A DNA stretch of 64,000 nucleotides, taken from Patiria pectinifera (Eukaryota; Echinodermata; Asteroidea; Valvatida; Asterinidae). The notes beneath the pieces were generated by a model. That model was given only the letters and a program-made list of their open reading frames with translations, searched no databases and had not been told where the DNA came from. The number at the start of each line of letters is the position of its first letter. Within the stretch, counting starts at the first letter, position 1. The DNA lies in assembly GCA_029964075.1 (NCBI GenBank), contig CM057138.1, positions 5,326,932 to 5,390,931 of the forward strand. The letters are read 5' to 3'. Shown piece after piece: positions 9,311 to 46,830 of this stretch. Both the position numbers and the translations under genes were made by a program.

Positions 9311-9536
9311 AGTGAGGGCACACAGGATCGCTGCAAGCATTACGCTGTGCACGGAGTGGAATGGATTGGTTGGGAAAGAAGTAAACTACGCAATTTGCGG
9401 GAACGCAACACTATCATACCTTTTCCACAGACGATTTGGTGGATGACTTCTTTGGGGCTAGGATCGACCATCAAAAATTGCGTTACCATCTTATCTGGTT
9501 GATAAGTCCGACGTACTGAGAAGGTTTCAATATTTT
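9311..9536. other. Unassigned stretch
   Basis: I see no gene or repeat here. Confidence 0.4.
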
Positions 9537-19100: not shown

Positions 19101-19464
19101 CCTGCACTTCAACATACATGGTTATTACGTCAAGCTTTCTCTGTTCACACTCAAAACTGTACAGCCCTCCACAGACAACGTAACCCCATCACAGCACCCA
19201 GCAGACTGAATCACACGTGGATATTTCAAATTCCATACACGTGGGGCTATTCAAACGCCATTATATAACTGCCTGACGCACACTGGACTGATGCACACCC
19301 AGCTGGGGGATGTGGTAGATGAGAGGGGCCGGGTTAGACCAAATTAGAAGGCGGGGAGGAAGTTATTGCTGAGGGGCTATTTTCACTACACAATTATTCA
19401 TTGTTCTATAAAAGGCAAATTAAAGTTAACAAACACATTTTGTGCTCAACTACTAACGAAAAAT
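16112..19464. other. Downstream flank of B1, no gene recognised
   Basis: About 3.3 kb of AT-rich sequence is shared with units 2 and 3. It contains a strong hairpin (18428-18458) and, on the minus strand, an AATAAA at 18731-18736 about 730 bases after the B1 stop, a possible polyadenylation signal that is also present at 31956 and 46145. No ORF here looks like a real gene. Confidence 0.5.
18428..18458. repeat. KpnI-core hairpin, unit 1
   Basis: CTTGTGGGGTACC and GGTACCCCGCAAG pair around the loop AAAAC: 13 base pairs with one wobble. A third GGGGTACC follows within 40 bases. The hairpin is conserved in units 2 (31636-31666) and 3 (45825-45855). Confidence 0.7.
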
Positions 19465-25400: not shown

Positions 25401-25896
25401 AAAATCAGCAGCATAACGAGATATTACTGGTAGTGGGAACTGTTACTGACGAGAGATCAATTCAAAGAGAAGGCATTGATTCTATCATGGATTAATTCTA
25501 ACAGTGCCAAGAAGGACCTTTTTTCATCCCTTTACCTTTTATCGACATTCCCTTTCCAAACAACTTGGGTGGTTCAATCCGGTCAGAGAAGCAGTCTGCC
25601 TGCTTGACTAGGGCTTCTTTGACGGCTTGGATGTCACTCAGAACCACTGCTAGCTTTGGGCCCATCCAGACGCTCATGATCCTCCCGTACTGTCGGGCCC
25701 AGTCAGTCATCACCAGATGCAAGGCTCCCCTCTGCAGACCACGGGTGTTACCGATGATCGGCCATGCTGGTGGACCCGGCGGCAGGTTCCTCGGACGACG
25801 GATCCAGGCGATGGTAAGCAACAGAACAACGACAAACAGGACCACAGTCTGCACGTTGAAGTTGCTTGCAGCACCGATCAATTCCTTCAGCACCAT
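19465..25896 (-). CDS. Gene B1: cytochrome P450, clan 2 (CYP2-like), six exons
   Basis: Exons in transcript order are 25896-25536, 25023-24620, 24382-24152, 23418-23229, 20217-20080 and 19643-19465, predicting 500 residues. Lengths and phases match gene A except small in-frame changes in exons 2 and 3. Motifs: membrane anchor (about 15-32), PPGP, WKERR (131-135), AGTDTT (307-312), EMQR as ExxR (364-367) and FSFGRRICMG with Cys446. The start is the first ATG, with the anchor right after it. All introns are GT-AG (exon 4 donor GTTCGA is weak). Intron 4 is about 3 kb and holds a foldback element and a SINE head. Intron 1 and the 5' part of exon 2 look copied from a gene-A-like source. B1 differs from B2 at only two residues that I could find (WTDP against WKDP; PAEK against PAGK). 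Confidence 0.92.
20567..20633 (-). repeat. tRNA-like SINE head in B1 intron 4
   Basis: On the minus strand, TGGCTCAGTTGG matches an A box and GAGTTCGAAAC a B box at tRNA-like spacing. The sequence then runs into a pyrimidine-rich stretch. The stems do not form a clean cloverleaf, so a tRNA-derived SINE head is more likely than a working tRNA. It is conserved in units 2 and 3. Confidence 0.6.
20880..20902. repeat. GC-rich hairpin in B1 intron 4
   Basis: CCTCGCGG and CCGCGAGG flank a CTTCG loop, a perfect 8-base-pair stem. The same hairpin is in unit 2 (near 34188) and unit 3 (near 48242). Confidence 0.6.
21355..22641. mobile_element. Foldback (long inverted repeat) element in B1 intron 4
   Basis: Arms of roughly 600 bases read towards each other around a short centre (about 21975-22049). 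Matching pairs include GATCAATTCTTTGAA/TTCAAAGAATTGATC, GATGCCATCGTTAATT with its inverse, GATATCTTCAAGTAGTCTTG against CAAGACTACTTGATGATATC, and GGGAGACTTGAA against TTCAAGTCTCCC. The arms are diverged by substitutions and small indels. No ORF of note. It is present in all three units, so it is older than the triplication. Within the B1 transcript it could fold into a long imperfect hairpin. Confidence 0.85.
25178..25208 (-). other. Relic splice acceptor and conversion junction in B1 intron 1
   Basis: On the minus strand, GTTCTTCAGGCAGTGTCAT matches the working intron 1 acceptor/exon 2 start of B3 (near 53300-53320). In B1 it is followed at CCCTGCG by sequence matching gene A intron 1 from 11014 on. 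The working B1 acceptor is about 180 bases downstream, at 25024-25025. Confidence 0.8.
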
Positions 25897-27491
25897 GATG
25901 CGTGTTTATAATGATCGAGAGAGACACTATACTTAAAGCTTCAAGTGCAAACCTCGCGTTTGAAAGAGCCCCGATTTACCACAGCGTTTCTAAGTGAAGG
26001 AAGTCTGTTGTAGACGGGTTCATACAACCGAACCCAGCACAAAAAAAATCCGGAGCAAACTGGTACGGGCATTGAACTTCATAACGTTCAAGGTTCACCT
26101 GAACACTTGCCAGGGTTCACTGGGTCAAACGTCACCTCGAATTTCACAGGCTACACTATGCTCTGTGTGTGCATGGAAGGTACTTTTAAATCCAAACACA
26201 TACACACCACGGAGCAAGGGACACACAACCATTGTGACCGTTTTAGCAGATTTTCGGCTAACTTTGACAGAATTTTTGTTAAAAAAACGAGTTTGACAGA
26301 AATTTGACAATTTTTTTGGCAGATTTCCGGCAGAATTCTGCAAAAATGGTTTATTTTACAGAAAAACATAGCAAATTTAAAAAAAAAATTCCTTTTTGTT
26401 TAAAAAAGCTTCAATCTTTTTAAACAAACCCTTGTATATAATTGGACAGGTTGGCTGGTCTAGGTGCTGAGGTTTACTGGGAACCGCGTTTTGCCTGAAA
26501 TTGACGCAATTTCATAACATCTTTATGTGACTATGGATTGTTTATAATGTAATTTTAACCTAAACTAAGGCAATACTACAACATCTGCATGTAATTCGGG
26601 CGATTCACAATAATGCAAGGCGCCACCAAAAGTTTGCCATGGAGAGTCCAATTTTCTAGTTTACGGTCGACAAAACATGGCCCATTTGAATGAGTGGCAG
26701 TAGACAACTTGAACTAATTTGTTATTGATTGGGGCATAGCGTTCTGCCGCCTCACAAAAAAACACCACATTGATAAAAAGAAAACAAAATGGCAAACAGA
26801 TACTCGAATCATACCTTTACTGGAAAAACGAACAATTTCACTTGGTTGCTGACTGGTGGTCGCCCGACGCCCCTCCGACTGGTGGCTGACCTCCTTTGCA
26901 TGCTGGGTCGCTGCTCGGCTGGTGATGGCCCGAAGCTGCTCCGGTTCCGAGGGGTAGCAAACCCCGACCCCTGCTGGATGGCACTAGGCGTCTATTGCAT
27001 GCAGTGGGGTCCTAGGAGCCAAGCTCCTCGTCGCTGGCGAAGATCTTTAGCTTGTCCTCCTGCCGTGACGGAACCTGCCAGCTGCACCCCACTGCAGTCC
27101 CGTTCATGCCGTCCCGGGTGGCTGAGCTATAGAAAGCTTGGCAGCAGCCAACCCCGCATTCATATGGCTTTGTCTGGTAGTGTTCACAGGAGAACCGCAG
27201 GTCACGCCGAGGGTTGGTTTTCTTGTTGAAGGCTCGTCATCCATCTTGCATAGTCATTAATTTGGTGGCAATATTTATCGGGCTTAGCTGCAGGCCAGCT
27301 ACGCCGTGTTCTCCATAGAGGCTCCATAGCGCAACCATAGATATAGAACTTAAAAAAAAAAACTAGATTGGACGCGCGTATGATACGCGCGTTTTGACAG
27401 GACGCTGCCATTGGTCACGTGAATAGGGTCAAAAATTTAAACGCGCATTTCATCGGCATGACGATCACTTGTACTCCATCACTGCTTGAAA
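25897..27491. other. Intergenic region upstream of B1
   Basis: The region contains the B1 5' flank, a stretch near 26610-26850 also found upstream of genes B2, B3 and D, and (27000-27330) sequence that is an open minus-strand frame in unit 3 but broken here. No core promoter stands out; a TATA-like TATAAAC lies only about 15 bases before the ATG and is probably too close. Confidence 0.45.
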
Positions 27492-28536
27492 ATGGTGGCA
27501 ATCTGTGCGGCAGCAAAGTTCAACTAAGACGGAGAAAGGGACCCGGAGGACAGTCTCTCAAGAAGTATCATGTGTGAGTAACTTAATACACAGAATTTGT
27601 CTCTTGAGAGTACATTTCGAACAAGACAGCTTTTATAAAAATTAACTCAATATAGGCTACGTTACGCAATGCCAAATGGGCATAAATCATAGGAATGGGT
27701 GTGGAGAAAAATACCCATGTGTGATCCAAAGGATCCTCCGAATTTGGAATAACCGCGCAGGGCCTACTTAAAATATTTTCAGTGTATTGTTTTAAAAGTT
27801 AAGATGGTACTCCTGATCCTGAACATCGAATAACAATTATTTCTGGCCTTACATCACCCTCGTATCCCCTCTCCTGCTTTTCATTAATAGTCCGACTCCG
27901 CGGGGGTACGAGGATTGGGAGTCACTTTTGTTGTGGGATGTGGGTGATTTAAAAAAAATGCACCATTCTCCTAGTTTGAACACATCAATGAGAAATATTC
28001 CAAATGGCAGCAAATGGAATCCAACAAAGCACGATCGTCTTTGCAGCGACCATTTCCCTGCAGAGTGCTTCAAGGGGGAATGGGGGACACGTCTGCGTGT
28101 CGATGCCATACCGTCAATCTTTGAAGACTACCCGACTCATTTGAAGCCTGTAAGTATTACAATGAGCCTTGGGGCCAGGATAGGCTATCGATAATTACTG
28201 TCATGTATTTAAAGGCGTAGCATGTGCTTTATTTGTTTTATTTCGTAGAAAGACTACAGTCTCGTGTTTGGACTTCAGCACGAGAGAGAAAAGCTGCCAA
28301 CGACAAGGAAAGAACCGACCCGAGCCCCCGTCGAAGATATTGCTTCAGTGCATGGCTGTACCGGCAAAACAAACATCAGCGCATGCATACAGTCTACCAA
28401 CAGAAATGGATCTACCCTCGGAAGTAGCAGGAAGGCTTTATAATCCAAGCTTGAACAGGAAAACAGACAACTCCGGCAGGAAAATCGACGATCATGTCGA
28501 AAAAGATCTTATCCGTCAGAAAGGTGGTAAAAGGCC
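27492..28536 (+). pseudogene. THAP-domain gene remnant, unit 1
   Basis: The putative first exon at 27492 reads MVAICAAAKFN then a stop: the position of the second zinc-binding Cys is Phe. The next homology, within 27960-28149, gives the second half of a THAP zinc finger (KWNPTKHDRLCSDHFPAECF, then VDAIPSIF). It ends at a good donor (GTAAG at 28150). A following exon from 28249 (acceptor TCGTAG) is open, meets a stop near 28441, and in the same frame has a short coiled-coil-like stretch (KLEQENRQLRQENRR) typical after THAP domains. THAP proteins are DNA-binding and often derive from P-element-like transposases. The stops and lost Cys argue for a pseudogene. Confidence 0.65.
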
Positions 28537-29476
28537 TGTAACAGGAGCAACTTGTTACTCCAGAGACGGCCGACCAGATGGAAACACAGTTTCCTATTCT
28601 GCAATTGGAAGTCACTTTGCTGGAGCTGGGAAAACTGCGCCTTGCTCAACGAATCACAATCATAGTGAACAGATGAAGAAGTTTGCACTGCTCGACAAAA
28701 GCGTACATCTTCGTCAGAAAGAAGATTGCACTGCCGACTGTGCGTACAGTGAGGAGATAGCTGGCCACGCATGCATAACTGGGCCCAAAGAAATGCCCAA
28801 ATTTTATGGCAGATTTTGATCACAGTTGAAGTCCAGACACAGCCCACATGTTCTATGAGCATAGTTTCTAAGTATGATGATATCAGAATGATCTATTTCA
28901 GCGGATAAGATACACAAAATAATAAAGGTTTAAAGCGAAAATGACACTTATACGTCTGAGTGAGTTTAACGTTTGCCGTAGAGGGGAAGTTGTCACGTAC
29001 GCCACGGCGAAGTACGTCGCGTAAGCTTATACAAGATCGGGCCTACACTCGGCATAATACAACGGTTTATAAACATTATCACATAATCAAAATTGTGACG
29101 AGTTACGTATAATAACAAAGATTATGGATAACCACCAGAACATACTTTATAATTCAAATGAAAGAAACAGAGCACAGTTTGGGTGAGTATGTTCACTACA
29201 ATCCTGCGTGGCGCGGTCAAACAAAGGTTAGGCTCGTTTCAAGTCTGACCACATTATTAACCTAACAAATATTTCTAAAAAGAATAATCTGGATAATTAA
29301 CTAGTTTTAAAAAGGATATTGTTTTGCGAAGTAAATATGTCATAAATTTTGAGTTGACAATGATGATGTGTTGAATGATGTTTATGTGAAATGTGGATAT
29401 TAATAATCGTATTAATAAGATTAAAAAAAAAAATGTTGGGGGGGGGGTGGGGGGCACTTTGGCATTGATGCATTAA

Positions 29477-30001
29477 AGGGAATGTACAACATTGGCTTTT
29501 GCTGTAATTTTCAGAAATGAACTATTTGAGGGGTTAGTGTAATTGATCAAATATTGTTACACTGACATTTTTTAAGTTTTGTGTTCGAAAAGGTTGGAAA
29601 AACCAAGAAAAACAAAAAATGTTCATGTAGTCTGGTTCCCTGACTCCACAAAAGATAAAATGGATAATTTATAGATGATGGAAAATTGTAAGGCAAGGGA
29701 ACCAGTCTAGCTGGCCTGCACCCGTTCATGAACATGTAACCAATAGCAAACAAAATTTGGGCCCCAAAAAAATGGTAAATTTGGAGCAGTAGTTGAAAAA
29801 TAGTTAGGTTTTTCCAACGCTGGTCGGCCAACCACCGTTGGAAATGTATACAAAAATACCATTTTCTTGAAAATGACTTCACACCAGGTGCCATAATTTT
29901 ACAAGATGCTTGAGACTGTCATTTACCAACATCCTAGTAAGGTATTTCGTTAAAACTTGGTAGTTTTATTTTTCGATGTTTGCAAATGTTGTATATTCCC
30001 T
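29477..30001. mobile_element. piggyBac-like MITE, TTAA target site, unit 2
   Basis: A 525-base insertion begins AGGGAATGTACAACATT and ends with the inverse of AGGGAATATACAACATT. It is flanked by TTAA at 29473-29476 and 30002-30005. Unit 1 has the empty site with a single TTAA (near 16786), which shows the borders directly. TTAA duplication is the hallmark of piggyBac-type transposition. No transposase ORF. Confidence 0.9.
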
Positions 30002-32562
30002 TTAAGAAGGTCGGCTGCAGCACCGCGTATACGCATGTGTCCAGTCACAAGAAGAAACGTCTCTCATTATTCCCATCAGTTAGCTGTCAGCTGAACAGCT
30101 GGATAGTTTTTAACGGATGGCTGTGTGGATGTTTATATCCTACTTTGCCCTTTCCAATTAACATTATTTCGTCTAAAACGCCCAATTTGGCGCGTGGGTC
30201 ATCGCCACGTGGGTGTGGTTTTGAAGAAAATAGGTGTTGATTGGTTTGGAGTGGGTTCCTTGACAATTTTTTCATCCATCGGCATGTAAAACGAATGTAA
30301 GCCCATATTTTTAAAGGTTTTCATCGAAGACATCGAAGAAACACTGTTTCGATTTAGTTTCTGTCTTTTTTTCCAAGTGAAGTAGTTCCAAGCAATTAAG
30401 AGTGAAAACATATCGTTAGTTAGAGGTTTTGCGGGAAAAACTTCTTTTTTTTGAAGTGGAAACTTAATTATACTCTTGTCCCAAATTTGAATCCGTTCGA
30501 GCGAGTATTATATACATCTGGAAATAAGGGTGAAACTACTTTACATCATGTAATACGGCAATCATTAATTTAACAAGATACATATTGCTGTTAAAAGTGA
30601 ATTTCCTTTATTTTCAACCACCTTATATGGCGGGCGCAGACATTTGGAAGCTTCTTACACTTCCTCGTCTAGTTCCCAAACCCATTTGATTAACTCAATG
30701 GTCCATGAGTGTGGAGTGTTAAACGGTAACACATACGGTTACAGATGTAATCATGATCGGCTGACGTAACCCCGCCCACACCTATGTGTGTTTTCTGTTT
30801 TTATGCTACGTGATTAGTAATCTGATTACCTGCATTGAAATTGAATTTGAAAAGGAAATAGTCGTCGAATTTGCTTATTAGTTATTTCGAATCTGGAAAT
30901 ATCCATTCCAACAAGAACTACCAAAAGTGCACTTTATCGCTGCCCGAATTTTGAACTTTATTCCACTAATTATACCATCTTAATAACTACAACCTTTGCA
31001 CCATAGATAACAAAACAAATTTGAAGTTAAAAGGAAAAGGAAAACTTAACGACAGTTTTCCCTACATTATATCACAGAGACCCAAAATCCTGAAACCATT
31101 TTTCTCCATTCTTCTTTCACAAATTCTGATTTCGTTTACGTACAGAGCGCGGAGATGTGAACTTTTTCAATGTTTAACTCTTACCTTACGCATACCTGAA
31201 GCTAAAATTAATCAGCAATTAAAGTTGAACACTTTTGTTTTCGACGTGCCAATCCCAGAAAACCGGAATTTGAAACAACTCTGGACGTCGCACGAAACGC
31301 GTGTGTAATTGTTACCCATATAGAAACGCAATTTTAGTTGCTTCCTACTAGGGCATATTGTAGCTAATTAATGGACAGTTTAAACTCGTGACACACACAC
31401 ATACACACACGCTATGCAAGGAATAGAAGTGGGGTACTTCCTTTGTTCTCGTGTACTAAAATTTTGCAACGTCGCACACTAATTTCAAAATACTCTTATT
31501 TTAACCTGAATTAATTTCCTGGGCTGAAATTAAGACTTAATATCCCTTTTCTAAAACTCTGCCACTTGCAACGGATCAACCCACCTTGGAAATTCCTAGT
31601 TTTTGAGTAAATTCCATATATCTATTTCGTAAAAACTTGTGGGGTACCAAAACGGTACCCCGCAAGTCGGTGGGCATTCCTTGTGGGGTACCTCCCATTG
31701 ATCCGGTACCCCATAAGGCAGTGTTTGTACACGCATGTGACCTCGCATCTAAAAGTGTTTAGTTTACCAAAATGAAATAACATCTGAGGGATCAACGGCC
31801 AATATATCACTGACAATTACGAACACAAATTGCTAGGTAACGCAACTGAACATATAATCGTTAAACAAACAGTCTATTAATAATAGTATTATGTTGTAGA
31901 TTGGTCAGGGGCCGCAGCGAGACAGAACGAATTTTAAAGGCTTAATGTGAATTACTTTATTTAGAAATACAGACCCGTCTACTTCTTAATCCTCAGTCCT
32001 AAATCTAGGACCAACGTACGGTCACACGATTTAAGGCAATTAAAGCAACTTACAAAGGAACTTGTTGCAAAAGTATAAGCAAGACATACAATAGTATAAG
32101 AAAGTGGCTCGTTGATTACCACGGGAGTGGATCCAGGTTTGGATCAAGAGGGAGTTCAGCTGCCGGGGGCGGGGATGTTAACAGACATTTACCTTTTTTT
32201 GTCTGCCAGTTGGGCATAGCTTATGGTAATGTACCATAACCCGACTCCAACTCCAGTGGAGATTGGACTATTTGTGTCCTGCACTACAACATACATGGTT
32301 ATTACGTCAAGCTTTCTCTGTTCACACTCAAAACTGTACAGCCCTCCACAGACAACGTAACCCCATCACAGCACCCAGCAGACTGAATCACACGTGGATA
32401 TTTCAAATTCCATACACGTGGGGCTATTCAAACGCAATTATATAACTGCCTGACGCACACTGGACTGATACACACTCAGCTGGGGGATGTGGTAGATGAG
32501 AGGGGCCGGGTTAGACCAAATTAGAAGGCGGGGAGGAAGTTATTGCTGAGGGGCTATTTTCA

Positions 32563-32697
32563 TTAATAATAATAATTATATTCTTATATAGCGCCAAATC
32601 CTTCAAATTGACGTTTAAGGCCCTTTACAATCATTAACAAAAACCAAAAAAACAAACAAACAAACAAACAAACACAAAACAAAATTCCAAAACTTAA
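32563..32697. mobile_element. Retroelement-like insertion found only in unit 2
   Basis: About 135 bases starting in an ATT/AAT-rich stretch, with TTCTTATATAGCGCC, and ending in a CAAA-type repeat run are absent from the same place in units 1 and 3. The simple-repeat tail suggests a short retrotransposed element. Insertion followed separation of units 2 and 3. Confidence 0.7.
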
Positions 32698-32776
32698 TTA
32701 CACAATCATTCATTGTTCTATAAATGGCAAAGTAAAGTTTACAAACATATTTTATGCTCAACTGCTAACGAAAAAT

Positions 32777-35700
32777 TCATCGCTTCTTAGCAACAATCTC
32801 GAAGGGCTGTGGAGCAAGGGTCACCCCGGTGATTCCCTCCAGAGAGGGGCGTGGTTTCCCGGCAGGCAAGGAGAAGGTGAATCGCTGGAGGAGGTTGACA
32901 AAGAAGAGGAACATCTCCATCTTAGCCAGGGTCTCTCCCATGCAAATACGCCGACCTGGAAAGGGTATGCGCGAATAAGGAAGAAAGACACAAAGACCTT
33001 TTTAAAAACTGGACAGCGCCCGAGGAGTTTGTGCAAACATAAGTATGCTCGACAGGCCTGTTCTTTAAATAATGACATTATTTAAGCGTTCGTGACCACG
33101 AAATAAGGAGTTAAAAATTTACGGGTAACTATCATCCTCGCATTTACACAGAAAATTTGGTTGTTAATGTCAACCAGAAAAGGCCTCGAAAAGCGGGATG
33201 AAGGAAGGTGTGTGTTATCGGTAAAATCACACTGATCGTCAAAGGGATGGCGTTTTTTTTTCTTCGTGCGCTGTTTTTTTTCAAAACGAGCTACTTATAA
33301 TACACATGTAAAATTCAAAATATCGAGCTGTTCCATCAGACTAATTCTCCAGTGTTTGGGTAAAATTACTGATGTTTATTTTGACATACCAAAACTGAAT
33401 GGGATGAAAGCCTCCGGTCTCTCGACCGTCTTGCCGTCTTTGGACAGGAACCTGGCGGGGTCGAACTTCTCCGGGTCCTTCCAGCATTTCGGATCGCGTA
33501 GAATGGCCCACAAATTCACGAAGACAGCTTTATGTGATAATTAAATAGGGGTAAAAAAAGTGACATATTTGACGCTCTGATTTTGTCATATGCCAACCTT
33601 TGCTACAAATCACACCATTATTTAAGAAATAAAAAAATATCCCCTGCCCGGGTGCGAATTTGTTTTCTCAAACGACATAAGCTAATGGGGAGTACGTTAT
33701 GAGGTTTTGGATTAACCCTAACCCAACCCTATCCCTTTCCTACAAACATGAGAAGAAAAAAACATATGAAAGAAAGAGAAAGAAATGAATTCGAGCCTAA
33801 CGAAACTCGGACTTAATTTGCCTTAAAAAAATCCTCCAAAGCCGCAAATTACAAAAGAAAAAAAAGGGAAAATGTGGTTTCGAACTCACACTCTCCGATC
33901 TCAAAACCATGGCATTATCCAACTGAGCCATCGGAGAGCTCCACAGCAGATCGTAAATCATTATATGGCATTATATACCTGCGTACGTATAATATAAGTA
34001 TCGTAGAGGGTGCTCAGCAACCATCCAATACGATGTTGTTTGGGCAAAACTATTTCGCTGCCCCAGATTATTTGGCCTGGGCGTCCAGATACGTCATTTA
34101 GTGCATTCTTTGTATTGCTTTGATGCAGGGCAAAAGGCGATCGTAACAAATCACTTCGCCTGCACTGTTTAGTCTCCACTCAACTCGCCTCGCGGCTTCG
34201 CCGCGAGGTTTGAATTCCAAAGTCACAGTAGACTTTTCAAAAGACTAACTTGACCTTGTGATACCATAATACAAACTCAGCCAGACCTAGCCAAAATGTT
34301 TGTTATATCAGAATTTTGCACTAAGTGGAGTGCCCGTCCCATTCATTGTGCACAAAAATGCACAGTCGGGATCAAGGCTTTATGTTTGCTATAACCAGAA
34401 GTCGTATTAACAGTGTTTGTATTAACGAGGGTCGATTGGTGAACAATTTTTGAGAAACAGTATGGTAGACATGTATGCCCATTTGAAGCAAGTTATCATT
34501 ACGGACACACTCTCGCAAAATGTGGTCCGGGTGCTTTCTATACAAAAACCTCGTTGGCTTGGGGTTTTGTATGTAAACCTTATCAGTCAGCCGATCACGC
34601 TCAATTGACTTCGGCCAAACCGCAGTCCCATCATAAGAAATAAGTTAACAATGTTATCCGGACCATTTTTTCCGAGAGTGTGTCTGTAATGGTTGATGGG
34701 CTTTTGCAAATGGGAAAGACACTTTGGAAAAATCCAATCAGTTTCAATATGCTTCATGAATTTCTGAATAAACGAGCACATTTTTAACAGTATTTAATTA
34801 CTATTATTTTTTTGGTGTGGTCGTGGTGGTGGTGGGGGTGGCTGGCTGAGGGGGGGTGGGGTGCAAGACAGAAGATATTTCAGAATGGCGCAATAAGACC
34901 GACAGCGGGCGCAATAATTTTGATTAGGGTTTCAAAAATTTCTACGCGTCCGAGTCCTTAATTTGCATAAAAAGTGCCCCCACAACTTTTTGTAAAAAAC
35001 GAGACGGTCTAGTTTAAAAATCGGTGGAATCGTGCGAATATAGCCGAGGATCATCTCCCTAGCTTTTGGGCTATTATCTCAGAGCAGATTTGATAAAATT
35101 AGGGTCAAAAAATGGGTCCTATTTGCAGGAGAAAATGTAGGGATGCCACTGGTAACTTTGGCAGTATGCAGGCTCAGCATTACCGGCAGGCTTCAAGCAT
35201 TACGGACACACTCTCGCAAAATGTGGTCCGGGTGCTTTCTATACAAAAACCTCGTTGGCTTGGGGTTTTGTATGTAAACCTTATCAGTCAGCCGATCACG
35301 CTCAATTGACTTCGGCCAAACCGCAGTCCCATCATAAGAAATAAGTTAACAATGTTATCCGGACCATTTTTTCCGAGAGTGTGTCTGTAATGATGCTACG
35401 GAGGGGACCCCGTTCTTTTGTGTTCATCATTGTGTTCGCAGAATCTCAGGAATAATTTTGAGAAATCTAGGGTGATGTGTTAGGTAACAATATTCTAGAT
35501 TGTAGGTATAGGGACACTTTGGAATACCCTGTGTCGCAGATCGTGCACACCATCTAGGAGGGCACCATTTGGCTTTGATAAGCTCTTAATTGTAATAGTA
35601 GGCCAGCCAAATGTGGAAAAGTTCTCTAGATGATAATTTCACGGCATTTCGGGGTAATAGCTGGCATCCCTGCTAGATCAATTCTTTGAACCATAACAAA

Positions 35701-38700
35701 CAAGATGTAGGTGGATGCCATCGTTAATTTTGACCCTAAATATACCTAATTTGCATAAATCATTAATCCCTGCCGTGTAATATATCTGTTCCCCACATTT
35801 GTGTATATTTTAATTTTTTTTACTTGTGAAAGTTTCATTTTGGTAATTCTACTTACACATCCTTACTTCAATAACATCTTCTAAAGCATATAAGTGACCG
35901 AATATTATTATGAGGACATAGTAACGATCCAAAATGGCTACTCTTTCGCATATTTACATGTACCTTGTCTCCAGATATCTTCAAGTAGTCTTTCCAAACA
36001 TCAGTATATGAGCTTCAAATTCACCAAGTTGCTTACTGGCACAGTATTTAAACCTTATTGAAAAGCATGCGAACAATGATAACGTTGTGATATCTAGCCC
36101 AGCAAACAGAAATGGGTAAAACGAGGTGTCCGTTAATTGGCCCAATTAGTGAAGGGTTGCCTAACGTGGGAGACTTGAAAAGGTTAAGGAAATTCCCAAA
36201 ATTATTGGAAAGACCATACTGACATTGACATAATTACTGGAAGAATTTTTCTGGGGGGGGGGGTTCCTTGAGCTTATTCAAGTCTCCCACGTTAAGCGAC
36301 CCTTCGCCTTATTTAAGCCCAGTTTACGGATAACCAGCTCGTTTTCCTGTTTTTGTTTGCCGAGCTAAATATCATAATGGTATCATTGTTCGCATGATTT
36401 TTCCATAAAGTTTTAATAGGGCAACTGTGCAAATAAGCAACTTGATGAATTTAATGTTCATCAATACTGAGGTTTGGCAAGACTACTTGATGATATCTGG
36501 AGACAAGGTAAATTTTTGGGTATAATAGTAGTAATTTTGGATCGTTTCTATGTCCTCATAATTATTATTCAGTCACTTATATGCTGAAGAAATTGTAATA
36601 TAAGTAAGGGTGTGTTAGTAGAATCACTTATATAAACTTGTCAAAAAAATAAAGAATATACCCAAATATGGGAATAAGTATATTACGAGGCAGGGATTAA
36701 CAATTTATGTAAATAAGGTATATTTAGGGTCCAAATTAACGATGGCATCCACCCACATCTTGTTTGTTATGGTTCAAAGAATTGATCTAGCATGGATGCC
36801 GCCAGCTATTACCAACAAATGACCAGGACCAAATAGCACCCTTCTATTGTTTTGAACATTAAGATAAGACGCCACCAGCAACCTTGTCCCCAGCGCTTAC
36901 TTTATTTCCAACTTCGTTTCCAATTGTAAGCCCTGAACACGAAACTTTCTTCCTGTATCCTGATTTGATACCGCAATCGGTTAGTAATGGATTTATATCG
37001 TGTACTTAGTGTTGTTATTTCCAACGTGCATTACGTGTTTTCACGATCATTGTAATAATTTTTATAACGTCCACGACTCATTTCCTTTCCAATTTGCTCA
37101 TATTAATATCAAATGTGATATTGTGATATAGTGCATATTGGCGGGAAAAGATTGTTGTAAAGTTTGACTTCAAAAACTGTCGTGTTTTCGTAACTTGCGG
37201 TGCGACGAATTGATGTTGTTTTTACCCCAGACACTGCATACAAAAACAAACGCTTATGAAACGCACTTGCAGGCACCCGACTATTCCTCATTTGCATACT
37301 TTTTCCAAACTTTGGCACATACAAATAATTCAATACCAGGGTGAGAGAACGGGTACTGGTGGGCGCGTACTGCTCGACAACCTGGGGACGAGGTTAAGAC
37401 CCCACGACCATGGATCTTGCATCAGTAGAATATCGAACCTGTTTTAGCAGGAATGGTATAACCGCACAACTCAGTCTGGTAACGTGTCTGATGTGGCACA
37501 GCACTGGGAGTGACGGGTCGGTGTCGCTGCATCTCCATCAGTACGGCGTTGGTGTACGGCATGGCGTTACTGTCCTCGCCAATTGGCTGTCTGTCGCTTC
37601 CGATGACGTCATCGATTTCTTTCTGCACCTGAAATCAAACAAACGGCATCGATTCCTTGACTGATTATAAGATTGTTATACAGGAAGTTCAGACTTGGAT
37701 TGATATCGAGGACATGAGTGTTTGTCTTATGTGGTGAACTGAGAGTTAGGCTATTTATCACGAAAACCAAAGACGCCTGCTTGACCTAACTCAAAGACGG
37801 ATTGTTTTGCCATCAATAACTAAGGTAAAATTTCAAAAGAGATGGAGATAGGTCATGCTGTCTTCAAACTCATACATCCTAAGGCCACAGGCCAGTAAAT
37901 AGGCCCAAAATTGCCTACGCCGGCCAAATCACGATTTGCATGCCCTCAAATTCTCTGCTATTAGAGCATTTTGTGGACCATGAACTTGATGGTTTATGAA
38001 AAAGCACTGCGAGCTTGTATTTATGTTGGATGAAGTGGCACTTAAATTGCTCTATTTTGAAATGGAGCATAGGCATCCTTTTTCAAAAAATTGCGATGGC
38101 CTTCAGGACATCTTTGGATGGAGACTTCTCTCAAAAGTCATCTAATTATCCCCCCCAAAAAAAGAACAAAACTTTAATTTGATGTATGCCTCAAACACCT
38201 TGGAGAGTTGGGCGTATTTTTCCAGATTTTTTTGGAGTGGGGTATTTATCACTGGGGTCTATGGCACTTCATTTACTGGTCTACAACCCTATGACTTTCA
38301 GAAACGAAAAACATATCCTCAATATGCCTAGAAGTGTTTGCCATCCATCCGAGGACCGTACCTTGTTTTGAACCTCCGGGTAGATAGCCATGTACAGCAT
38401 CAGCCACAACAGAGTGTTAGTGGTGGTATCGGTCCCAGCTACGAAAAAGTCTTGAATACTCCTCCACAGTGTCGTCCTGCAAAATGCGGTATCTTCACCC
38501 GTTTTCCCGTTCTTTTCCTGTAGCTCGATTTCCACCAGGTACATGTCGATGATGTCACGGAGGTCATTTGGGTCGAATGACTCTGCATGTTCCTGTAGAT
38601 AAAACAAACTCAAAGTCAAAACAAAGCATTATGTGCGTCATTATTTGGCCCTTCACCCTCCAGTCTAATTTATTGCTCGTTTCGTGCCTGAAGTACCCCC

Positions 38701-40106
38701 TCAACGTTTGCAAAGCTAAAGTTGCAGGAGACCACTGGGAATGGGAGGGTCTCTTCGTTTACGCATTGTCCTCGAAATAAATCATCAAGCACCATCTACT
38801 GTTCACGTACAGATTTCATTAAAACGTACTTGTACAATTTCTTGGATGAAATTACGGATCTCTTTTTGCCCCTGAAGTAAGCCGGTGTGCTTGGACCTGT
38901 TAAAAAACGCTTGGAAGATACCCAGCACGTTCAAAGACACGGTCGAAAGTCTAATCTTGACGAGTTTGATGAGACGGGCGAATTTGGGGTCGGAGTACTC
39001 GAAGCGGTAGCCGAAGCTGATCAGGCAGATGATGTTGGAGACCGCGTTCAGGATGGCGTGCTCGGGGTCAAAGGGCTTCTCTCCTTCGCCGTCAAAACGC
39101 TCGAGGAGATAGCGCGCCTCTTCGGTGATCTTGTGCTCCACGCTTCTCTTGCCCATGCCCAGGGTTCGCATGGCGCTCAGCCCAAAGCGTCGCCGCTCCT
39201 TCCAGTTATCTCCGTTTGACATGACAATGCTTCCTGAAGTATAGTATAGAACAAAATGACAGGGTTCTTTGTTTTGAAACATTCTGTTTCATCCAGCAGC
39301 CAGAAACGTTTATAGATTAGTCTTTATTTTTGATTGGCGATGAGATTGCCTAGTGCATTGATAGGATAGTTCATTGTCCTCTATAACCGCAGGGTTATGA
39401 CACTGCCTGAAGAACAACATAATGCACTTGAAAAGAAAGGTGCGCGGAGCTAGGGCCGAAACAAATATTGTGCAAACGAAAACTTTTTCAGCTAACGGGG
39501 CCGAAACAAATATTGTGCAAATGAAAACTTAAAAGCAGTTTCAACCAAATAAAATATGTAATTGACGACACATCAATGCATGGCGTCAATTACTATACCA
39601 GCGGCATACTAAAATCAGCAGCATAACGAGATATTACTGGTAGTGGGAACTGTTACTGACGAGAGATCAATTCAAAGAGAAGGCATTGATTCTATCATGG
39701 ATTAATTCTAACAGTGCCAAGAAGGACCTTTTTTCATCCCTTTACCTTTTATCGACATTCCCTTTCCAAACAACTTGGGTGGTTCAATCCGGTCAGAGAA
39801 GCAGTCTGCCTGCTTGACTAGGGCTTCTTTGACGGCTTGGATGTCACTCAGAACCACTGCTAGCTTTGGGCCCATCCAGACGCTCATGATCCTCCCGTAC
39901 TGTCGGGCCCAGTCAGTCATCACCAGATGCAAGGCTCCCCTCTGCAGACCACGGGTGTTACCGATGATCGGCCATGCTGGTGGACCCGGCGGCAGGTTCC
40001 TCGGACGACGGATCCAGGCGATGGTAAGCAACAGAACAACGACAAACAGGACCACAGTCTGCACGTTGAAGTTGCTTGCAGCACCGATCAATTCCTTCAG
40101 CACCAT
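32777..40106 (-). CDS. Gene B2: chimeric cytochrome P450, clan 2 (CYP2-like), six exons
   Basis: Exons in transcript order are 40106-39746, 39233-38830, 38592-38362, 37628-37439, 33527-33390 and 32955-32777, predicting 500 residues. All landmarks found in B1 are present, including AGTDTT, EMQR and FSFGRRICMG. By eye, exons 1-4 encode the same protein as B1, while exons 5-6 encode the same residues as B3 (WKDP; PAGK). The mosaic falls in intron 4, where unit 2 switches from unit-1-like to unit-3-like sequence. The gene is intact and in frame, so it probably makes a full enzyme. Like B1, it carries the gene-A-like tract at intron 1/exon 2 and the relic acceptor (39388-39418). Expression and substrate are unknown. 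Confidence 0.92.
33874..33940 (-). repeat. tRNA-like SINE head in B2 intron 4
   Basis: Unit 2 copy of the element at 20567-20633, with the same A-box-like and B-box-like motifs. Confidence 0.6.
34497..34691 (+). mobile_element. 195-base TIR element, left member of a pair, unit 2
   Basis: It begins CATTACGGACACACTCTCG and ends with the inverse CGAGAGTGTGTCTGTAATG. It has no coding capacity. It is nearly identical, and in the same direction, to 35198-35392. Confidence 0.85.
35198..35392 (+). mobile_element. 195-base TIR element, right member of a pair, unit 2
   Basis: Direct copy of 34497-34691. Together they bracket a 506-base spacer. Unit 1 lacks both elements and the spacer (empty site near 21186-21192), so the whole 896-base block behaves as one insertion. 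Confidence 0.85.
35560..36845. mobile_element. Foldback element in B2 intron 4
   Basis: Unit 2 copy of 21355-22641, with the same two arms and G-rich centre (near 36250). Small indels are shared with unit 3 rather than unit 1. Confidence 0.85.
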
Positions 40107-41669
40107 GATGCGTGTTTATAATGATCGAGAGAGACACTATACTTAAAGCTTCAAGTGCAAACCTCGCGTTTGAAAGAGCCCCGATTTACCACAGCGTTTC
40201 TAAGTGAAGGAAGTCTGTTGTAGACGGGTTCATACAACCGAACCCAGCACAAAAAAAATCCGGAGCAAACTGGTACGGGCATTGAACTTCATAACGTTCA
40301 AGGTTCACCTGAACACTTGCCAGGGTTCACTGGGTCAAACGTCACCTCGAATTTCACAGGCTACACTATGCTCTGTGTGTGCATGGAAGGTACTTTTAAA
40401 TCCAAACACATACACACCACGGAGCAAGGGACACACAACCATTGTGACCGTTTTAGCAGATTTTCGGCTAACTTTGACAGAATTTTTGTTAAAAAAACGA
40501 GTTTGACAGAAATTTGACAATTTTTTTGGCAGATTTCCGGCAGAATTCTGCAAAAATGGTTTATTTTACAGAAAAACATAGCAAATTTGAAAAAAAAGGT
40601 ACATTTGTTTAAAAAAGCTTCAATCTTTTTAAACAAACCCTTGTATATAATTGGACAGGTTGGCTGGTCTAGGTGCTGAGGTTTACTGGGAACCGCGTTT
40701 TGCCTGAAATTGACGCAATTTCATAACATCTTTATGTGACTATGGATTGTTTATAATGTAATTTTAACCTAAACTAAGGCAATACTACAACATCTGCATG
40801 TAATTCGGGCGATTCACAATAATGCAGTGCGCCACCAAAAGTTTGCCATGGAGAGTCCAATTTTCTAGTTTACGGTCGACAAAACATGGCCCATTTGAAT
40901 GAGTGTCAGTAGACAACTTGAACTAATTTGTTATTGATTGGGGCATAGCGTTCTGCCGCCTCACAAAAAAACACCACATTGATAAAAAGAAAACAAAATG
41001 GCAAACAGATACTCGAATCATACCTTTACTGGAAAAACGAACAATTTCACTTGGTTGCTGACTGGTGGTCGCCCGACGCCCCTCCGACTGGTGGCTGACC
41101 TCCTTTGCATGCTGGGTCGCTGCTCGGCTGGTAATGGCCCGAAGCTGCTCCGGTTCCGAGGGGTAGCAAACCCCGACCCCTGCTGGATGGCACTAGGCGT
41201 CTATTGCATGCAGTGGGGTCCTAGGAGCCAAGCTCCTCGTCGCTGGCGAAGATCTTTAGCTTGCCGTTCTTTAGTCCCGTTCATGCCGTCCCGGGTGGCT
41301 GAGCTATAGAAAGCTTGGCAGCAGCCAACCCCGCATTCATATGGCTTTGTCTGGTAGTGTTCAAAGGAGAACCGCAGGTCACGCCGAGGGTTGGTTTTCT
41401 TGTTGAAGGCCCGTCATCCATCTTGCATAGTCATTAATTTGGTGGCAATATTTATCGGGCTTAGCTGCAGGCCAGCTACGCCGTGTTCTCCATAGAGGCT
41501 CCATAGCGCAACCATAGATATAGAACTTAAAAAACAAAAACTAGATTGGACGCGCGTATGATACGCGCGTTTTGACAGGACGCTGCCATTGGTCACGTGA
41601 ATAGGGTCAAAAATTTAAACGCGCATTTCATCGGCATGACGATCACTTGTACTCCATCACTGCTTGAAA

Positions 41670-42722
41670 ATGGTGGCAATCTGTGCGGCAGCAAAGTTCA
41701 ACTAAGACGGAGAAAGGGACCCGGAGGACAGTCTCTCAAGAAGTATCATGTGTGAGTAACTTAATACACAGAATTTGTCTCTTGAGAGTACATTTCGAAC
41801 AAGACAGCTTTTATAAAAATTAACTCAATATAGGCTACGTTACGCAATGCCAAATGGGCATAAATCATAGGAATGGGTGTGGAGAAAAATACCCATGTGT
41901 GATCCAAAGGATCCTCCGAATTTGGAATAACCGCGCAGGGCCTACTTAAAATATTTTCAGTGTATTGTTTTAAAAGTTAAGATGGTACTCCTGATCCTGA
42001 ACATCGAATAACAATTATTTCTGGCCTTACATCACCCTCGTATCCCCTCTCCTGCTTTTCATTAATAGTCCGACTCCGCGGGGGTACGAGGATTGGGAGT
42101 CACTTTTTGTTGTGGGATGTGGGTGATTAAAGAAAATGCACCATTCTCCTAGTTTGAACACATCAATGAGAAATATTCCAAATGGCAGCAAATGGAATCC
42201 AACAAAGCACGATCGTCTTTGCAGCGACCATTTCCCTGCAGAGTGCTTCAAGGGGGAATGGGGGGGGGGGGGACACGTCTGCGTGTCGATGCCATACCGT
42301 CAATCTTTGAAGACTACCCGACTCATTTGAAGCCTGTAAGTATTACAATGAGCCTTGGGGCCAGGATAGGCTATCGATAATTACTGTCATGTATTTAAAG
42401 GCGTAGCATGTGCTTTATTTGTTTTATTTCGTAGAAAGACTACAGTCTCGTGTTTGGACTTCAGCACGAGAGAGAAAAGCTGCCAACGACAAGGAAAGAA
42501 CCGACCCGAGCCCCCGTCGAAGATATTGCTTCAGTGCATGGCTGTACCGGCAAAACAAACATCAGCGCATGCATACAGTCTACCAACAGAAATGGATCTA
42601 CCCTCGGAAGTAGCAGGAAGGCTTTATAATCCAAGCTTGAACAGGAAAACAGACAACTCCGGCAGGAAAATCGACGATCATGTCGAAAAAGATCTTATCC
42701 GTCAGAAAGGTGGTAAAAGGCC
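41670..42722 (+). pseudogene. THAP-domain gene remnant, unit 2
   Basis: Near-identical copy of the unit 1 remnant. The G-run after AAGGGGGAAT is 13 long here against 5 in unit 1, which shifts the frame inside the THAP homology. The first exon has the same early stop and missing Cys. It is therefore broken in one more place than the unit 1 copy. Confidence 0.65.
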
Positions 42723-42978
42723 TGTAACAGGAGCAACTTGTTACTCCAGAGACGGCCGACCAGATGGAAACACAGTTTCCTATTCTGCAATTGGAAGTCA
42801 CTTTGCTGGAGCTGGGAAAACTGCGCCTTGCTCAACGAATCACAATCATAGTGAACAGATGAAGAAGTTTGCACTGCTCGACAAAAGCGTACATCTTCGT
42901 CAGAAAGAAGATTGCACTGCCGACTGTGCGTACAGTGAGGAGATAGCTGGCCACGCATGCATAACTGGGCCCAAAGAA

Positions 42979-45900
42979 ATGCCCAAATTTTATGGCAGAT
43001 TTTGATCACAGTTGAAGTCCAGACACAGCCCACATGTTCTATGAGCATAGTTTCTAAGTATGATGATATCAGAATTATCTATTTCAGCGGATAAGATACA
43101 CAAAATAATAAAGGTTTAAAGCGAAAATGACACTTATACGTCTGAGTGAGTTTAACGTTTGCCGTAGAGGGGAAGTTGTCACGTACGCCACGGCGAAGTA
43201 CGTCGCGTAAGCTTATACAAGATCGGGCCTACACTCGGCATAATACAACGGTTTATAAACATTATCACATAATCAAAATTGTGACGAGTTACGTATAATA
43301 ACAAAGATTATGGATAACCACCAGAACATACTTTATAATTCAAATGAAAGAAACAGAGCACAGTTTGGGTGAGTATGTTCACTACAATCCTGCGTGGCGC
43401 GGTCAAACAAAGGTTAGGCTCGTTTCAAGTCTGACCACATTATTAACCTAACAAATATTTCTAAAAAGAATAATCTGGATAATTAACTAGTTTTAAAAAG
43501 GATATTGTTTTGCGAAGTAAATATGTCATAAATTTTGAGTTGACAATGATGATGTGTTGAATGATGTTTATGTGAAATGTGGATATTAATAATCGTATTA
43601 ATAAGATTTACAAAAAAAATAAAAAAATTGGGGGGTTGGGGGGCACTTTGGCATTGATGCATTAAAGGGAATGTACAACATTGGCTTTTGCTGTAATTTT
43701 CAGAAATGAACTATTTGAGGGGTTAGTGTAATTGATCAAATATTGTTACACTGACATTTTTTAAGTTTTGTGTTCGAAAAGGTTGGAAAAACCAAGAAAA
43801 ACAAAAAATGTTCATGTAGTCTGGTTCCCTGACTCCACAAAAGATAAAATGGATAATTTATAGATGATGGAAAATTGTAAGGCAAGGGAACCAGTCTAGC
43901 TGGCCTGCACCCGTTCATGAACATGTAACCAATAGCAAACAAAATTTGGGCCCCAAAAAAATGGTAAATTTGGAGCAGTAGTTGAAAAATAGTTAGGTTT
44001 TTCCAACGCTGGTCGGCCGACCACCGTTGGAAATGTATACAAAAATACCATTTTCTTGAAAATGACTTCACACCAGGTGCCATAATTTTACAAGATGCTT
44101 GAGACTGTCATTTACCAACATCCTAGTAAGGTATTTCGTTAAAACTTGGTAGTTTTATTTTTCGATGTTTGCAAATGTTGTATATTCCCTTTAAGAAGGT
44201 CGGCTGCAGCACCGCGTATACGCATGTGTCCAGTCACAAGAAGAAACGTCTCTCATTATTCCCATCAGTTAGCTGTCAGCTGAACAGCTGGATAGTTTTT
44301 AACGGATGGCTGTGTGGATGTTTATATCCTACCTTGCCCTTTCCAATTAACATTATTTCGTCTAAAACGCCCAATTTGGCGCGTGGGTCATCGCCACGTG
44401 GGTGTGGTTTTGAAGAAAATAGGTGTTGATTGGTTTGGAGTGGGTTCCTTGACAATTTTTTCATCCATCGGCATGTAAAACGAATGTAAGCCCATATTTT
44501 TAAAGGTTTTCATCGAAGACATCGAAGAAACACTGTTTCGATTTAGTTTCTGTCTTTTTTTCCAAGTGAAGTAGTTCCAAGCAATTAAGAGTGAAAACAT
44601 ATCGTTAGTTAGAGGTTTTGCGGGAAAAACTTCTTTTTTTTGAAGTGGAAACTTAATTATACTCTTGTCCCAAATTTGAATCCGTTCGAGCGAGTATTAT
44701 ATACATCTGGAAATAAGGGTGAAACTACTTTACATCATGTAATACGGCAATCATTAATTTAACAAGATACATATTGCTGTTAAAAGTGAATTTCCTTTAT
44801 TTTCAACCACCTTATATGGCGGGCGCAGACATTTGGAAGCTTCTTACACTTCCTCGTCTAGTTCCCAAACCCATTTGATTAACTCAATGGTCCATGAGTG
44901 TGGAGTGTTAAACGGTAACACATACGGTTACAGATGTAATCATGATCGGCTGACGTAACCCCGCCCACACCTATGTGTGTTTTCTGTTTTTATGCTACGT
45001 GATTAGTAATCTGATTACCTGCATTGAAATTGAATTTGAAAAGGAAATAGTCGTCGAATTTGCTTATTAGTTATTTCGAATCTGGAAATATCCATTCCAA
45101 CAAGAACTACCAAAAGTGCACTTTATCGCTGCCCGAATTTTGAACTTTATTCCACTAATTATACCATCTTAATAACTACAACCTTTGCACCATAGATAAC
45201 AAAACAAATTTGAAGTTAAAAGGAAAAGGAAAACTTAACGACAGTTTTCCCTACATTATATCACAGAGACCCAAAATCCTGAAACCATTTTTCTCCATTC
45301 TTCTTTCACAAATTCTGATTTCGTTTACGTACAGAGCGCGGAGATGTGAACTTTTTCAATGTTTAACTCTTACCTTACGCATACCTGAAGCTAAAATTAA
45401 TCAGCAATTAAAGTTGAACACTTTTGTTTTCGACGTGCCAATCCCAGAAAACCGGAATTTGAAACAACTCTGGACGTCGCACGAAACGCGTGTGTAATTG
45501 TTACCCATATAGAAACGCAATTTTAGTTGCTTCCTACTAGGGCATATTGTAGCTAATTAATGGACAGTTTAAACTCGTGACACACACACATACACACACG
45601 CTATGCAAGGCATAGAAGTGGGGTACTTCCTTTGTTCTCGTGTACTAAAATTTTGCAACGTCGCACACTAATTTCAAAATACTCTTATTTTAACCTGAAT
45701 TAATTTCCTGGGCTGAAATTAAGACTTAATATCCCTTTTCTAAAACTCTGCCACTTGCAACGGATCAACCCACCTTGGAAATTCCTAGTTTTTGAGTAAA
45801 TTCCATATATCTATTTCGTAAAAACTTGTGGGGTACCAAAACGGTACCCCGCAAGTCGGTGGGCATTCCTTGTGGGGTACCTCCCATTGATCCGGTACCC

Positions 45901-46830
45901 CATAAGGCAGTGTTTGTACACGTATGTGACCTCGCATCTAAAAGTGTTTAGTTTACCAAAATGAAATAACATCTGAGGGATCAACGGCCAATATATCACT
46001 GACAATTACGAACACAAATTGCTAGGTAACGCAACTGAACATATAATCGTTAAACAAACAGTCTATTAATAATAGTATTATGTTGTAGATTGGTCAGGGG
46101 CCGCAGCGAGACAGAACGAATTTTAAAGGCTTAATGTGAATTACTTTATTTAGAAATACAGACCCGTCTACTTCTTAATCCTCAGTCCTAAATCTAGGAC
46201 CAACGTACGGTTACACGATTTAAGGCAATTAAAGCAACTTACAAAGGAACTTGTTGCAAAAGTATAAGCAAGACATACAATAGTATAAGAAAGTGGCTCG
46301 TTGATTACCACGGGAGTGGATCCAGGTTTGGATCAAGAGGGAGTTCAGCTGCCGGGGGCGGGGATGTTAACAGACATTTACCTTTTTTTGTCTGCCAGTT
46401 GGGCATAGCTTATGGTAATGTACCATAACCCGACTCCAACTCCAGTGGAGATTGGACTATTTGTGTCCTGCACTACAACATACATGGTTATTACGTCAAG
46501 CTTTCTCTGTTCACACTCAAAACTGTACAGCCCTCCACAGACAACGTAACCCCATCACAGCACCCAGCAGACTAAATCGCACGTGGATATTTCAAATTCC
46601 ATACACGTGGGGCTATTCAAACGCAATTATATAACTGCCTGACGCACACTGGACTGATACACACTCAGCTGGGGGATGTGGTAGATGAGAGGGGGCGGGT
46701 AAGACCAAATTAGAAGGCGGGGAGGAAGTTATTGCTGAGGGGCTATTTTCACTACACAATTATTCATTGTTCTATAAAAGGCAAATTAAAGTTAACAAAC
46801 ACATTTTGTGCTCAACTACTAACGAAAAAT
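42979..46830. other. Downstream flank of B3, no gene recognised
   Basis: Nearly identical to the matching part of unit 2, including the TTAA element and hairpin (45825-45855). I see no real gene. Confidence 0.5.
43666..44190. mobile_element. piggyBac-like MITE, TTAA target site, unit 3
   Basis: Same 525-base element and flanking TTAA (43662-43665 and 44191-44194) as in unit 2. The shared site shows it was copied with the unit and not inserted twice. Confidence 0.9.

What the first reader, a model, noticed from the sequence alone, without database searches (positions are those of the whole stretch)
28793..42978. P450 unit 2 is a mosaic, making B2 a chimeric gene formed by unequal crossing over
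Left of about 37 kb, unit 2 shares with unit 3 the TTAA element, the paired 195-base elements and several indels that unit 1 lacks. Right of about 37.3 kb it matches unit 1, including the gene-A-like intron 1 tract that unit 3 lacks. This is what crossing over between misaligned unit 1 and unit 3 would leave as a middle copy. The switch falls in intron 4, so B2 joins B1-type exons 1-4 to B3-type exons 5-6 and stays in frame. The zone 36.85-37.3 kb has private differences and is not resolved.
Basis: partly seen in the sequence, partly recalled or inferred. Interest (0 to 1): 0.85.

Follow-up and report, generated by a model that had tools for sequence, protein, structure and literature searches.

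The report
Recombined third copy of starfish P450
In a bat-star genome a detoxification-type enzyme gene stands three times in a row, and the middle copy is one half of each neighbour, as ordinary crossing over between misaligned copies would leave it; the kind of event is well known, the case is new, and it should be checked against the raw reads.

Summary
The window lies in the published Patiria pectinifera assembly. It carries three direct units (11-14 kb), each with an intact 6-exon, 500-aa CYP2-type P450 gene on the minus strand. Left of 35.63 kb unit 2 is 0.2-0.4% from unit 3, outside two patches; at 37.34-40.4 kb it is 0.24% from unit 1; units 1 and 3 differ by 1.0-3.3% by block. The switch is far beyond chance (max chi-square 147; 0 of 2000 shuffles reach it). 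Derived markers agree: a TTAA insertion on the left joins units 2 and 3, a gene-A-derived tract on the right joins units 1 and 2. The two spacers differ by 1 substitution and 4 small indels. One unequal crossover in a two-unit array explains this best.

Corrections: the unresolved zone is wider (35.63-37.34 kb), and another patch lies at 32.38-33.05 kb; both carry U2-private bases and need a second process (allelic conversion, or haplotypes mixed in the consensus). B2 differs from B1 by only two residues. The source is a Nanopore assembly of a 5.16%-heterozygous animal, so the middle copy needs read-level proof. Known kind of event; low-moderate interest.

The parts
16108..28786 (.). Unit 1 (repeat 16108-27326 plus spacer S1, 27327-28786)
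   Evidence: self-BLAST and three-way alignment
28787..42972 (.). Unit 2, the mosaic unit (spacer S2 = 41504-42972)
42973..55422 (.). Unit 3 (no spacer follows)
19465..25896 (-). Gene B1, CYP2-type P450, exons 25536-25896, 24620-25023, 24152-24382, 23229-23418, 20080-20217, 19465-19643; 500 aa, no stop inside, GT-AG introns
32777..40106 (-). Gene B2 (chimeric), exons 39746-40106, 38830-39233, 38362-38592, 37439-37628, 33390-33527, 32777-32955; 500 aa, in frame
   Evidence: PF00067 E 1.8e-122
46831..54012 (-). Gene B3, exons 53652-54012, 52905-53308, 52435-52665, 51500-51689, 47444-47581, 46831-47009; 500 aa
28787..35627 (.). Left block of unit 2, unit-3 type (U2-U3: 1 difference in 604 at 28787-29405, 4 in 2356 at 29470-32382, 7 in 1676 at 33051-35627)
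29473..30001 (.). 529-base insertion with TTAA on both sides and 22 of 24 end bases inverted; shared by units 2 and 3, unit 1 is the empty site
   Evidence: a relative at 89.6% in the left flank, locus L021 3792-4326
34497..35392 (.). Stretch with two identical 195-base inverted-ended copies (34497-34691, 35198-35392) around about 506 bases; in units 2 and 3, not in unit 1
32383..33050 (.). Patch with 11 of 25 variable sites private to unit 2 and a private 135-base insertion (32562-32696) of a dispersed repeat; covers exon 6 of B2
35628..37342 (.). Mixed zone in intron 4 of B2: 34, 32 and 19 sites private to U1, U2, U3
   Evidence: no closer copy than the three units among the matches listed
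35645..36821 (.). Imperfect palindrome of 1177 bases (about 78% to its own reverse complement), member of a dispersed family; inside the mixed zone
37343..42972 (.). Right block of unit 2, unit-1 type (U1-U2: 7 differences in 2878 at 37343-40400, 14 in 1080 at 40401-41500; S1 and S2 1 substitution)
38955..39395 (.). Gene-A-like tract (start of exon 2 plus part of intron 1), in units 1 and 2 (24745-25185), 94.8% to gene A 11013-11453 in inverted orientation; about 157 bases of it missing in unit 3

Best explanation
An older array of two P450 units (1 and 3) mispaired with itself, unit 3 of one chromatid against unit 1 of the other, and crossed over in or beside the two copies of intron 4. The product is a three-unit array whose middle unit has the left part of unit 3 and the right part of unit 1; equivalently, a 14.2-kb tandem duplication running from intron 4 of B1 to intron 4 of B3. 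B2 takes exons 1-4 and the upstream region from unit 1 and exons 5-6 from unit 3, in frame. Shown: the mosaic, the single main switch, the frame, the youth of both halves. Inferred: that one crossover did it, that the exchange was between sister chromatids or near-identical haplotypes (both halves differ by only about 0.2% over most of their length), and that later exchange with another allele put the private patches into unit 2.
For: One main switch at 37.3 kb (max chi-square 147, 0 of 2000 permutations reach it). Derived markers on both sides: a TTAA insertion with the empty site in unit 1 joins 2 and 3. On the right, U1 and U2 share a tract like gene A, with residues 123, 124, 129 and 130, and L279; P. 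miniata's listed B protein has the B3 states at all five positions. Similar youth of the halves: 4/2356 (29470-32382) against 7/2878 (37343-40400), Fisher p = 0.76. Spacers S1 and S2: 1 substitution and four indels (1, 1, 1, 8 bases) over about 1460 bases, as a duplication running through them requires. In the palindrome part of the mixed zone U2 is still sister to U3 (7 shared derived sites against 0 for 1-2 and 1 for 1-3; tree support 99/95). The longest identical run of U1 and U3 (348 bases, U1 23203-23550) spans exon 4 beside the switch.
Against: The mixed zone (35628-37342) and the patch 32383-33050 are 2.5-5.1% from both neighbours with many U2-private sites; in zone b (36822-37342) U1 and U3 share 3 derived bases against U2 (support 85/84). 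One crossover does not make these. No donor was listed in the genome searches. With all columns of the blocks, the right half looks older than the left: 21/3958 against 12/4636, p = 0.053 (with the spacer 22/5413, p = 0.23); the excess lies in 40401-41500 (14 of 1080). Unit 1 has no spacer on its left and unit 3 none on its right, so how the first two-unit array arose is unclear. No reads were seen.
Confidence: 0.7

Rival explanations
1. Assembly product: the animal has fewer units, and a Nanopore assembly of a very heterozygous diploid ran round the unit twice or mixed haplotypes, giving a false hybrid copy. The private patches would be the other haplotype.
For: Assembly made with NextDenovo from Nanopore data (N50 21 kb); the two of three parts of the paper read here mention no phasing or purging of haplotigs; k-mer heterozygosity 5.16%, k-mer genome size 426 Mb against 615 Mb assembled (PMC10511450). 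A loop passed twice gives exactly this middle copy. S1 and S2 differ by more indels (4) than substitutions (1), as residual Nanopore error would. Only one P. miniata B protein is listed in the protein search.
Against: The two copies of the loop differ by a 135-base insertion, a 32-base deletion and dozens of substitutions, which one loop read twice would not show. Two haplotypes at 5% would differ over the whole 14 kb, not in patches (inference). The paper gives BUSCO duplication of 2.1%. No further copy of the two stretches searched (32383-33700, 35628-37500) was listed on another contig.
Confidence: 0.2
2. Unit 2 is an old third unit whose left was overwritten by unit 3 and whose right was overwritten by unit 1 through two gene conversions; the mixed zone and patch are what remains of it.
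For: Zone b of U2 branches outside U1+U3 (85/84); private insertion and private sites sit in separate islands. The halves may not be of one age if all columns are used (p = 0.053).
Against: Needs two tracts of about 6 kb each, one of which must also carry the whole spacer; in zone a U2 groups with U3 (99/95).
Confidence: 0.1

Closest known systems
CYP337B3 of Helicoverpa armigera (chimera of CYP337B2 and CYP337B1)
   Same: A P450 chimera of two related P450 genes, attributed to unequal crossing over (PMC6211633, passages).
   Different: There a chromosome carries the chimera or the two parental genes, and the chimera has an activity that the parents lack. Here the parents flank the chimera, and it differs from one parent by two residues; no activity is known.
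Human hybrid P450 genes such as the 21-hydroxylase gene/pseudogene chimeras
   Same: Hybrid genes in tandem P450 arrays by misaligned recombination (papers seen in a search listing only; details recalled).
   Different: There the exchange often joins a gene to a pseudogene (recalled); here all three copies are open.
Recent tandem duplication by non-allelic homologous recombination
   Same: Both ends of the duplicated 14.2 kb lie at homologous positions of two older repeats.
   Different: The exchange zone holds a 1.2-kb palindrome and U2-private sequence, which a plain duplication does not need.

Membership tests
Chimeric gene by unequal crossing over | Middle copy joins the left type of one neighbour to the right type of the other with one main switch | tested here: met
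Chimeric gene by unequal crossing over | Both parental copies recognisable in the array, with shared derived markers on each side | tested here: met
   TTAA insertion; gene-A-like tract and L279
Chimeric gene by unequal crossing over | Both recent halves of equal age | tested here: inconclusive
   4/2356 against 7/2878, p = 0.76 in the cleanest blocks; 12/4636 against 21/3958, p = 0.053 with all block columns
Chimeric gene by unequal crossing over | No third type of sequence in the middle copy | tested here: not met
   zone 35628-37342 and patch 32383-33050: a second process is needed, so this is filed as a chimera by crossing over plus later change, not as a simple one
Chimeric gene by unequal crossing over | The extra copy exists in the animal | not testable with these tools
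   no reads on hand
Cytochrome P450, CYP2 clan | P450 domain over the protein and closest relatives in CYP2 | tested here: met
   PF00067 residues 39-495, E 1.8e-122; best solved relatives CYP2D6, CYP2B, CYP2R1; best named proteins 'P450 2U1-like' of sea stars
Cytochrome P450, CYP2 clan | Heme-binding motif FxxGxRxCxG (motif recalled) | tested here: met
   FSFGRRICMG in B1, B2 and B3
Cytochrome P450, CYP2 clan | Monooxygenase activity | not testable with these tools
   no expression or assay data

The most novel reading that the evidence does not exclude
The P450 array is a copy-number polymorphism kept in flux by exchange at a long palindromic repeat in intron 4: the palindrome (one in each unit) breaks, misaligned repair adds or removes units, and allelic repair around it leaves the private tracts seen only in the middle unit. 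Intron 4 would then be a module boundary at which 5' and 3' halves of these enzymes are reshuffled.
Probability: 0.12. Interest if true: 0.5.

Novelty: new member of a known kind. Interest (0 to 1): 0.25.

Why it matters
It is a clean textbook case: both parents and the product stand side by side, so the exchange can be placed to within about 2 kb. In this species paralogous units (about 1-3% apart) differ less than the k-mer heterozygosity (5.16%), so copy gain, allelic variation and conversion act on the same scale; that makes tandem arrays in such assemblies both interesting and untrustworthy. If the copy number varies between animals, it is a natural test of how detoxification arrays expand.

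Tried and rejected
Arm-to-arm conversion inside the palindrome as the source of U2's private bases: of 15 U2-private sites in it, the facing arm carries U2's base at 2, the common base at 10, neither at 3. Rejected for U2. For U1 it is 10 of 24 (10 common, 4 neither), for U3 3 of 14; not pursued.

Another genomic copy as donor of the mixed zone or of the patch: in the matches listed only the three units reach over 90% across most of the query; other matches of 400 bases or more to the zone are at 72-88%, and relatives of the 135-base insertion at 88-95%. Only 40 of 3185 and 40 of 174 first-look candidates were scored there, so a donor could have been missed.

Polarity by residue 412: rejected as evidence, since B1 and P. 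miniata's B protein have T, while four of the five other sea-star proteins aligned have K and one has N. E474 is private to B1.

A first exon-2 boundary for B3 was wrong because the alignment placed a 173-base gap over the splice site; corrected. A first outgroup test of zone a used three of the nine family members in the poorer orientation and gave 5, 1 and 0 shared derived sites for 2-3, 1-3 and 1-2; one search redoes it with all nine in their best orientation (7, 1, 0; 2 of 55 sites unusable).

A base rate of other near-identical tandem duplications in this assembly was wanted and not obtained.

A search of the whole genome with the B2 5' part and spacer S2 did not complete, so it is not known whether the spacer occurs elsewhere.

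Papers: searches on the Patiria genomes, chimeric P450 with unequal crossing, hybrid P450 genes, echinoderm CYP2 clusters, palindromes with unequal crossing, false duplications and starfish P450 with unequal crossing (0 papers). PMC10511450 was read in two of three parts; PMC6211633 in abstract, list of sections and passages; all others only as search listings.
Full report
WHERE THE WINDOW LIES. The window is C10:5326932-5390931 of a 613.5-Mb genome in 1020 contigs. The longest and shortest of contigs C1-C22 are 54,886,374 and 15,291,986 bases, equal to the largest and smallest pseudochromosome of the Patiria pectinifera assembly in Table 1 of PMC10511450. Total and contig number differ somewhat from the paper (615 Mb, 22 + 1458), so this is taken as the deposited version of that assembly (inference). 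The best protein match to B2 is a P. miniata P450 at 97%.

THE UNITS. Self-BLAST and a three-way alignment show three direct units, 16108-28786, 28787-42972 and 42973 to about 55422. Each has a minus-strand P450 gene of six exons and 500 codons, with no stop inside and GT-AG introns. The B2 protein matches PF00067 at E 1.8e-122; closest solved structures are CYP2D6, 2B and 2R1. Gene A stands left (plus strand; 97-99% to P. miniata P0007 in five of six matched stretches, the sixth, at 83%, runs past its exon), gene C right (like P0005). So the order is A, three B, C. The protein search lists one B in P. miniata, a cluster of one member; that listing does not prove a single copy there.

THE MOSAIC. 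Per block, differences U1-U2, U2-U3, U1-U3: 28787-29405: 5, 1, 6 of 604. 29470-32382: 63, 4, 65 of 2356. 32383-33050: 20, 16, 14 of 533. 33051-35627: 23, 7, 20 of 1676. 35628-36821: 40, 29, 39 of 1170. 36822-37342: 26, 22, 14 of 507. 37343-40400: 7, 83, 82 of 2878. 40401-41500: 14, 40, 36 of 1080. The table leaves out 64 bases at 29406-29469, a mixed stretch. Spacers S1 and S2: 1 substitution, four indels. The best split of 142 and 145 informative sites falls between 37320 and 37371 with chi-square 147.0; the largest of 2000 permutations is 23.7. A second alignment gives nearly the same counts. Indel rows agree: 27 of 33 set U1 apart in the left block (four of these are pieces of one insertion), 21 of 25 set U3 apart in the right block.

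POLARITY. The 529-base insertion has TTAA on both sides and inverted ends, with one TTAA in U1, so the shared state of 2 and 3 is read as derived. On the right, U1 and U2 share a 441-base tract at 94.8% to gene A, including about 157 bases of intron 1 that U3 and gene C do not match. At residues 123, 124, 129, 130 and 279, P. miniata's B protein has the B3 states, so those of B1/B2 are read as derived, the first four by conversion from gene A, which lies in opposite orientation. The 897-base stretch with two 195-base copies has no clear target-site duplication, so its polarity is left open.

PROTEINS. B1 and B2 differ at T412K and E474G; B2 and B3 at 15 residues. Exon 4 is identical in all three. 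In exons 5-6, three bases say 2=3, one says 1=2 and one is private to U2. Nei-Gojobori dN/dS is 0.26-0.29 in all three comparisons, the B1-B2 one on four changes only.

THE MIXED ZONE. 35628-37342 has 34, 32 and 19 sites private to U1, U2 and U3 in 1677 columns. U2-private sites are far denser here than in the blocks (32/1677 against 18/7990, p = 2.5e-13; the blocks leave out 28787-29469 and the patch). The left 1.18 kb is an imperfect palindrome of a dispersed family. Nine family members as outgroups give 7 shared derived sites for 2-3, 1 for 1-3, 0 for 1-2, with 16, 15 and 14 private ones and 2 unusable of 55; the tree joins U2 and U3 (99/95; an earlier version with three outgroups misoriented gave the same tree). 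So zone a is of unit-3 type but 2.5% from U3. In the next 0.6 kb, two outgroups give 3 shared derived sites for 1-3, none for the others, 8, 6 and 5 private ones and 10 unusable of 32; U2 is outside (85/84). The private sequence is on the scale of allelic differences in this species (5.16%). I read it as later allelic conversion or as haplotype mixing in the consensus; the data do not choose.

MECHANISM. One exchange between U3 of one copy and U1 of the other predicts: 3-type left and 1-type right in the middle unit only, an extra spacer, equal ages of the halves, and a product in frame. Ages agree in the cleanest blocks (p = 0.76) and less well when all block columns are used (12/4636 left, 21/3958 right, p = 0.053; with the spacer p = 0.23), because 40401-41500 holds further patches. 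That most of both halves is only about 0.2% apart while alleles differ by about 5% suggests sister chromatids or near-identical haplotypes (inference). The stated error of the assembly (0.066%) means that part of the 0.2% may be error.

ALTERNATIVES. The main rival is an assembly product (0.2); two conversions of an old third unit come next (0.1). See the rival list.

NOVELTY. Chimeric P450 genes by unequal crossing over are known, for instance CYP337B3 (PMC6211633, passages). The one search aimed at starfish P450 and unequal crossing found 0 papers. New member of a known kind.

Noticed in passing
11013-11453 and 24745-25185 / 38955-39395: Gene A and genes B1/B2 share a 441-base tract at 94.8% although they lie in opposite orientation; the matches of B3 and gene C lack about 157 bases of it. 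Looks like gene conversion from A to B1 before the triplication.
   Followed up: partly
61372-64000 and locus L022 158-1569: Gene C against P. miniata P0005: exons 1 and 4 at 98%, exons 5 and 6 at 86-87%; the exon-3 stretch (85%) runs past its exon. Gene C may itself be a mosaic.
   Followed up: no
35645-36821 (also 21441-22618, 49707-50887): A 1.18-kb imperfect palindrome in each unit belongs to a dispersed family with many copies at about 72-88% in the genome.
   Followed up: partly
34497-35392 and 48550-49454: Two 195-base elements with inverted ends flank about 506 bases, as a composite insertion would; unit 1 lacks it, without a clear target-site duplication.
   Followed up: partly
27823-28191 (and its copy in spacer S2): The spacer between units holds a frame with a weak THAP-domain match (E 8.3e-6); the spacer is missing left of unit 1 and right of unit 3, so its origin is unclear.
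   Followed up: no
258-2851: Frames with retroelement domains (RNase H, integrase zinc-binding and core), read as a Gypsy-like remnant.
   Followed up: no
4660-5181 and 8827-9311: Short repeats of similar sequence in opposite orientation about 4 kb apart.
   Followed up: no
32562-32696: 135-base insertion found only in unit 2 of the three; relatives at 88-95% at other places in the genome.
   Followed up: partly
23203-23550 and 51474-51821: Longest identical run of units 1 and 3 (348 bases) spans exon 4, beside the switch.
   Followed up: partly
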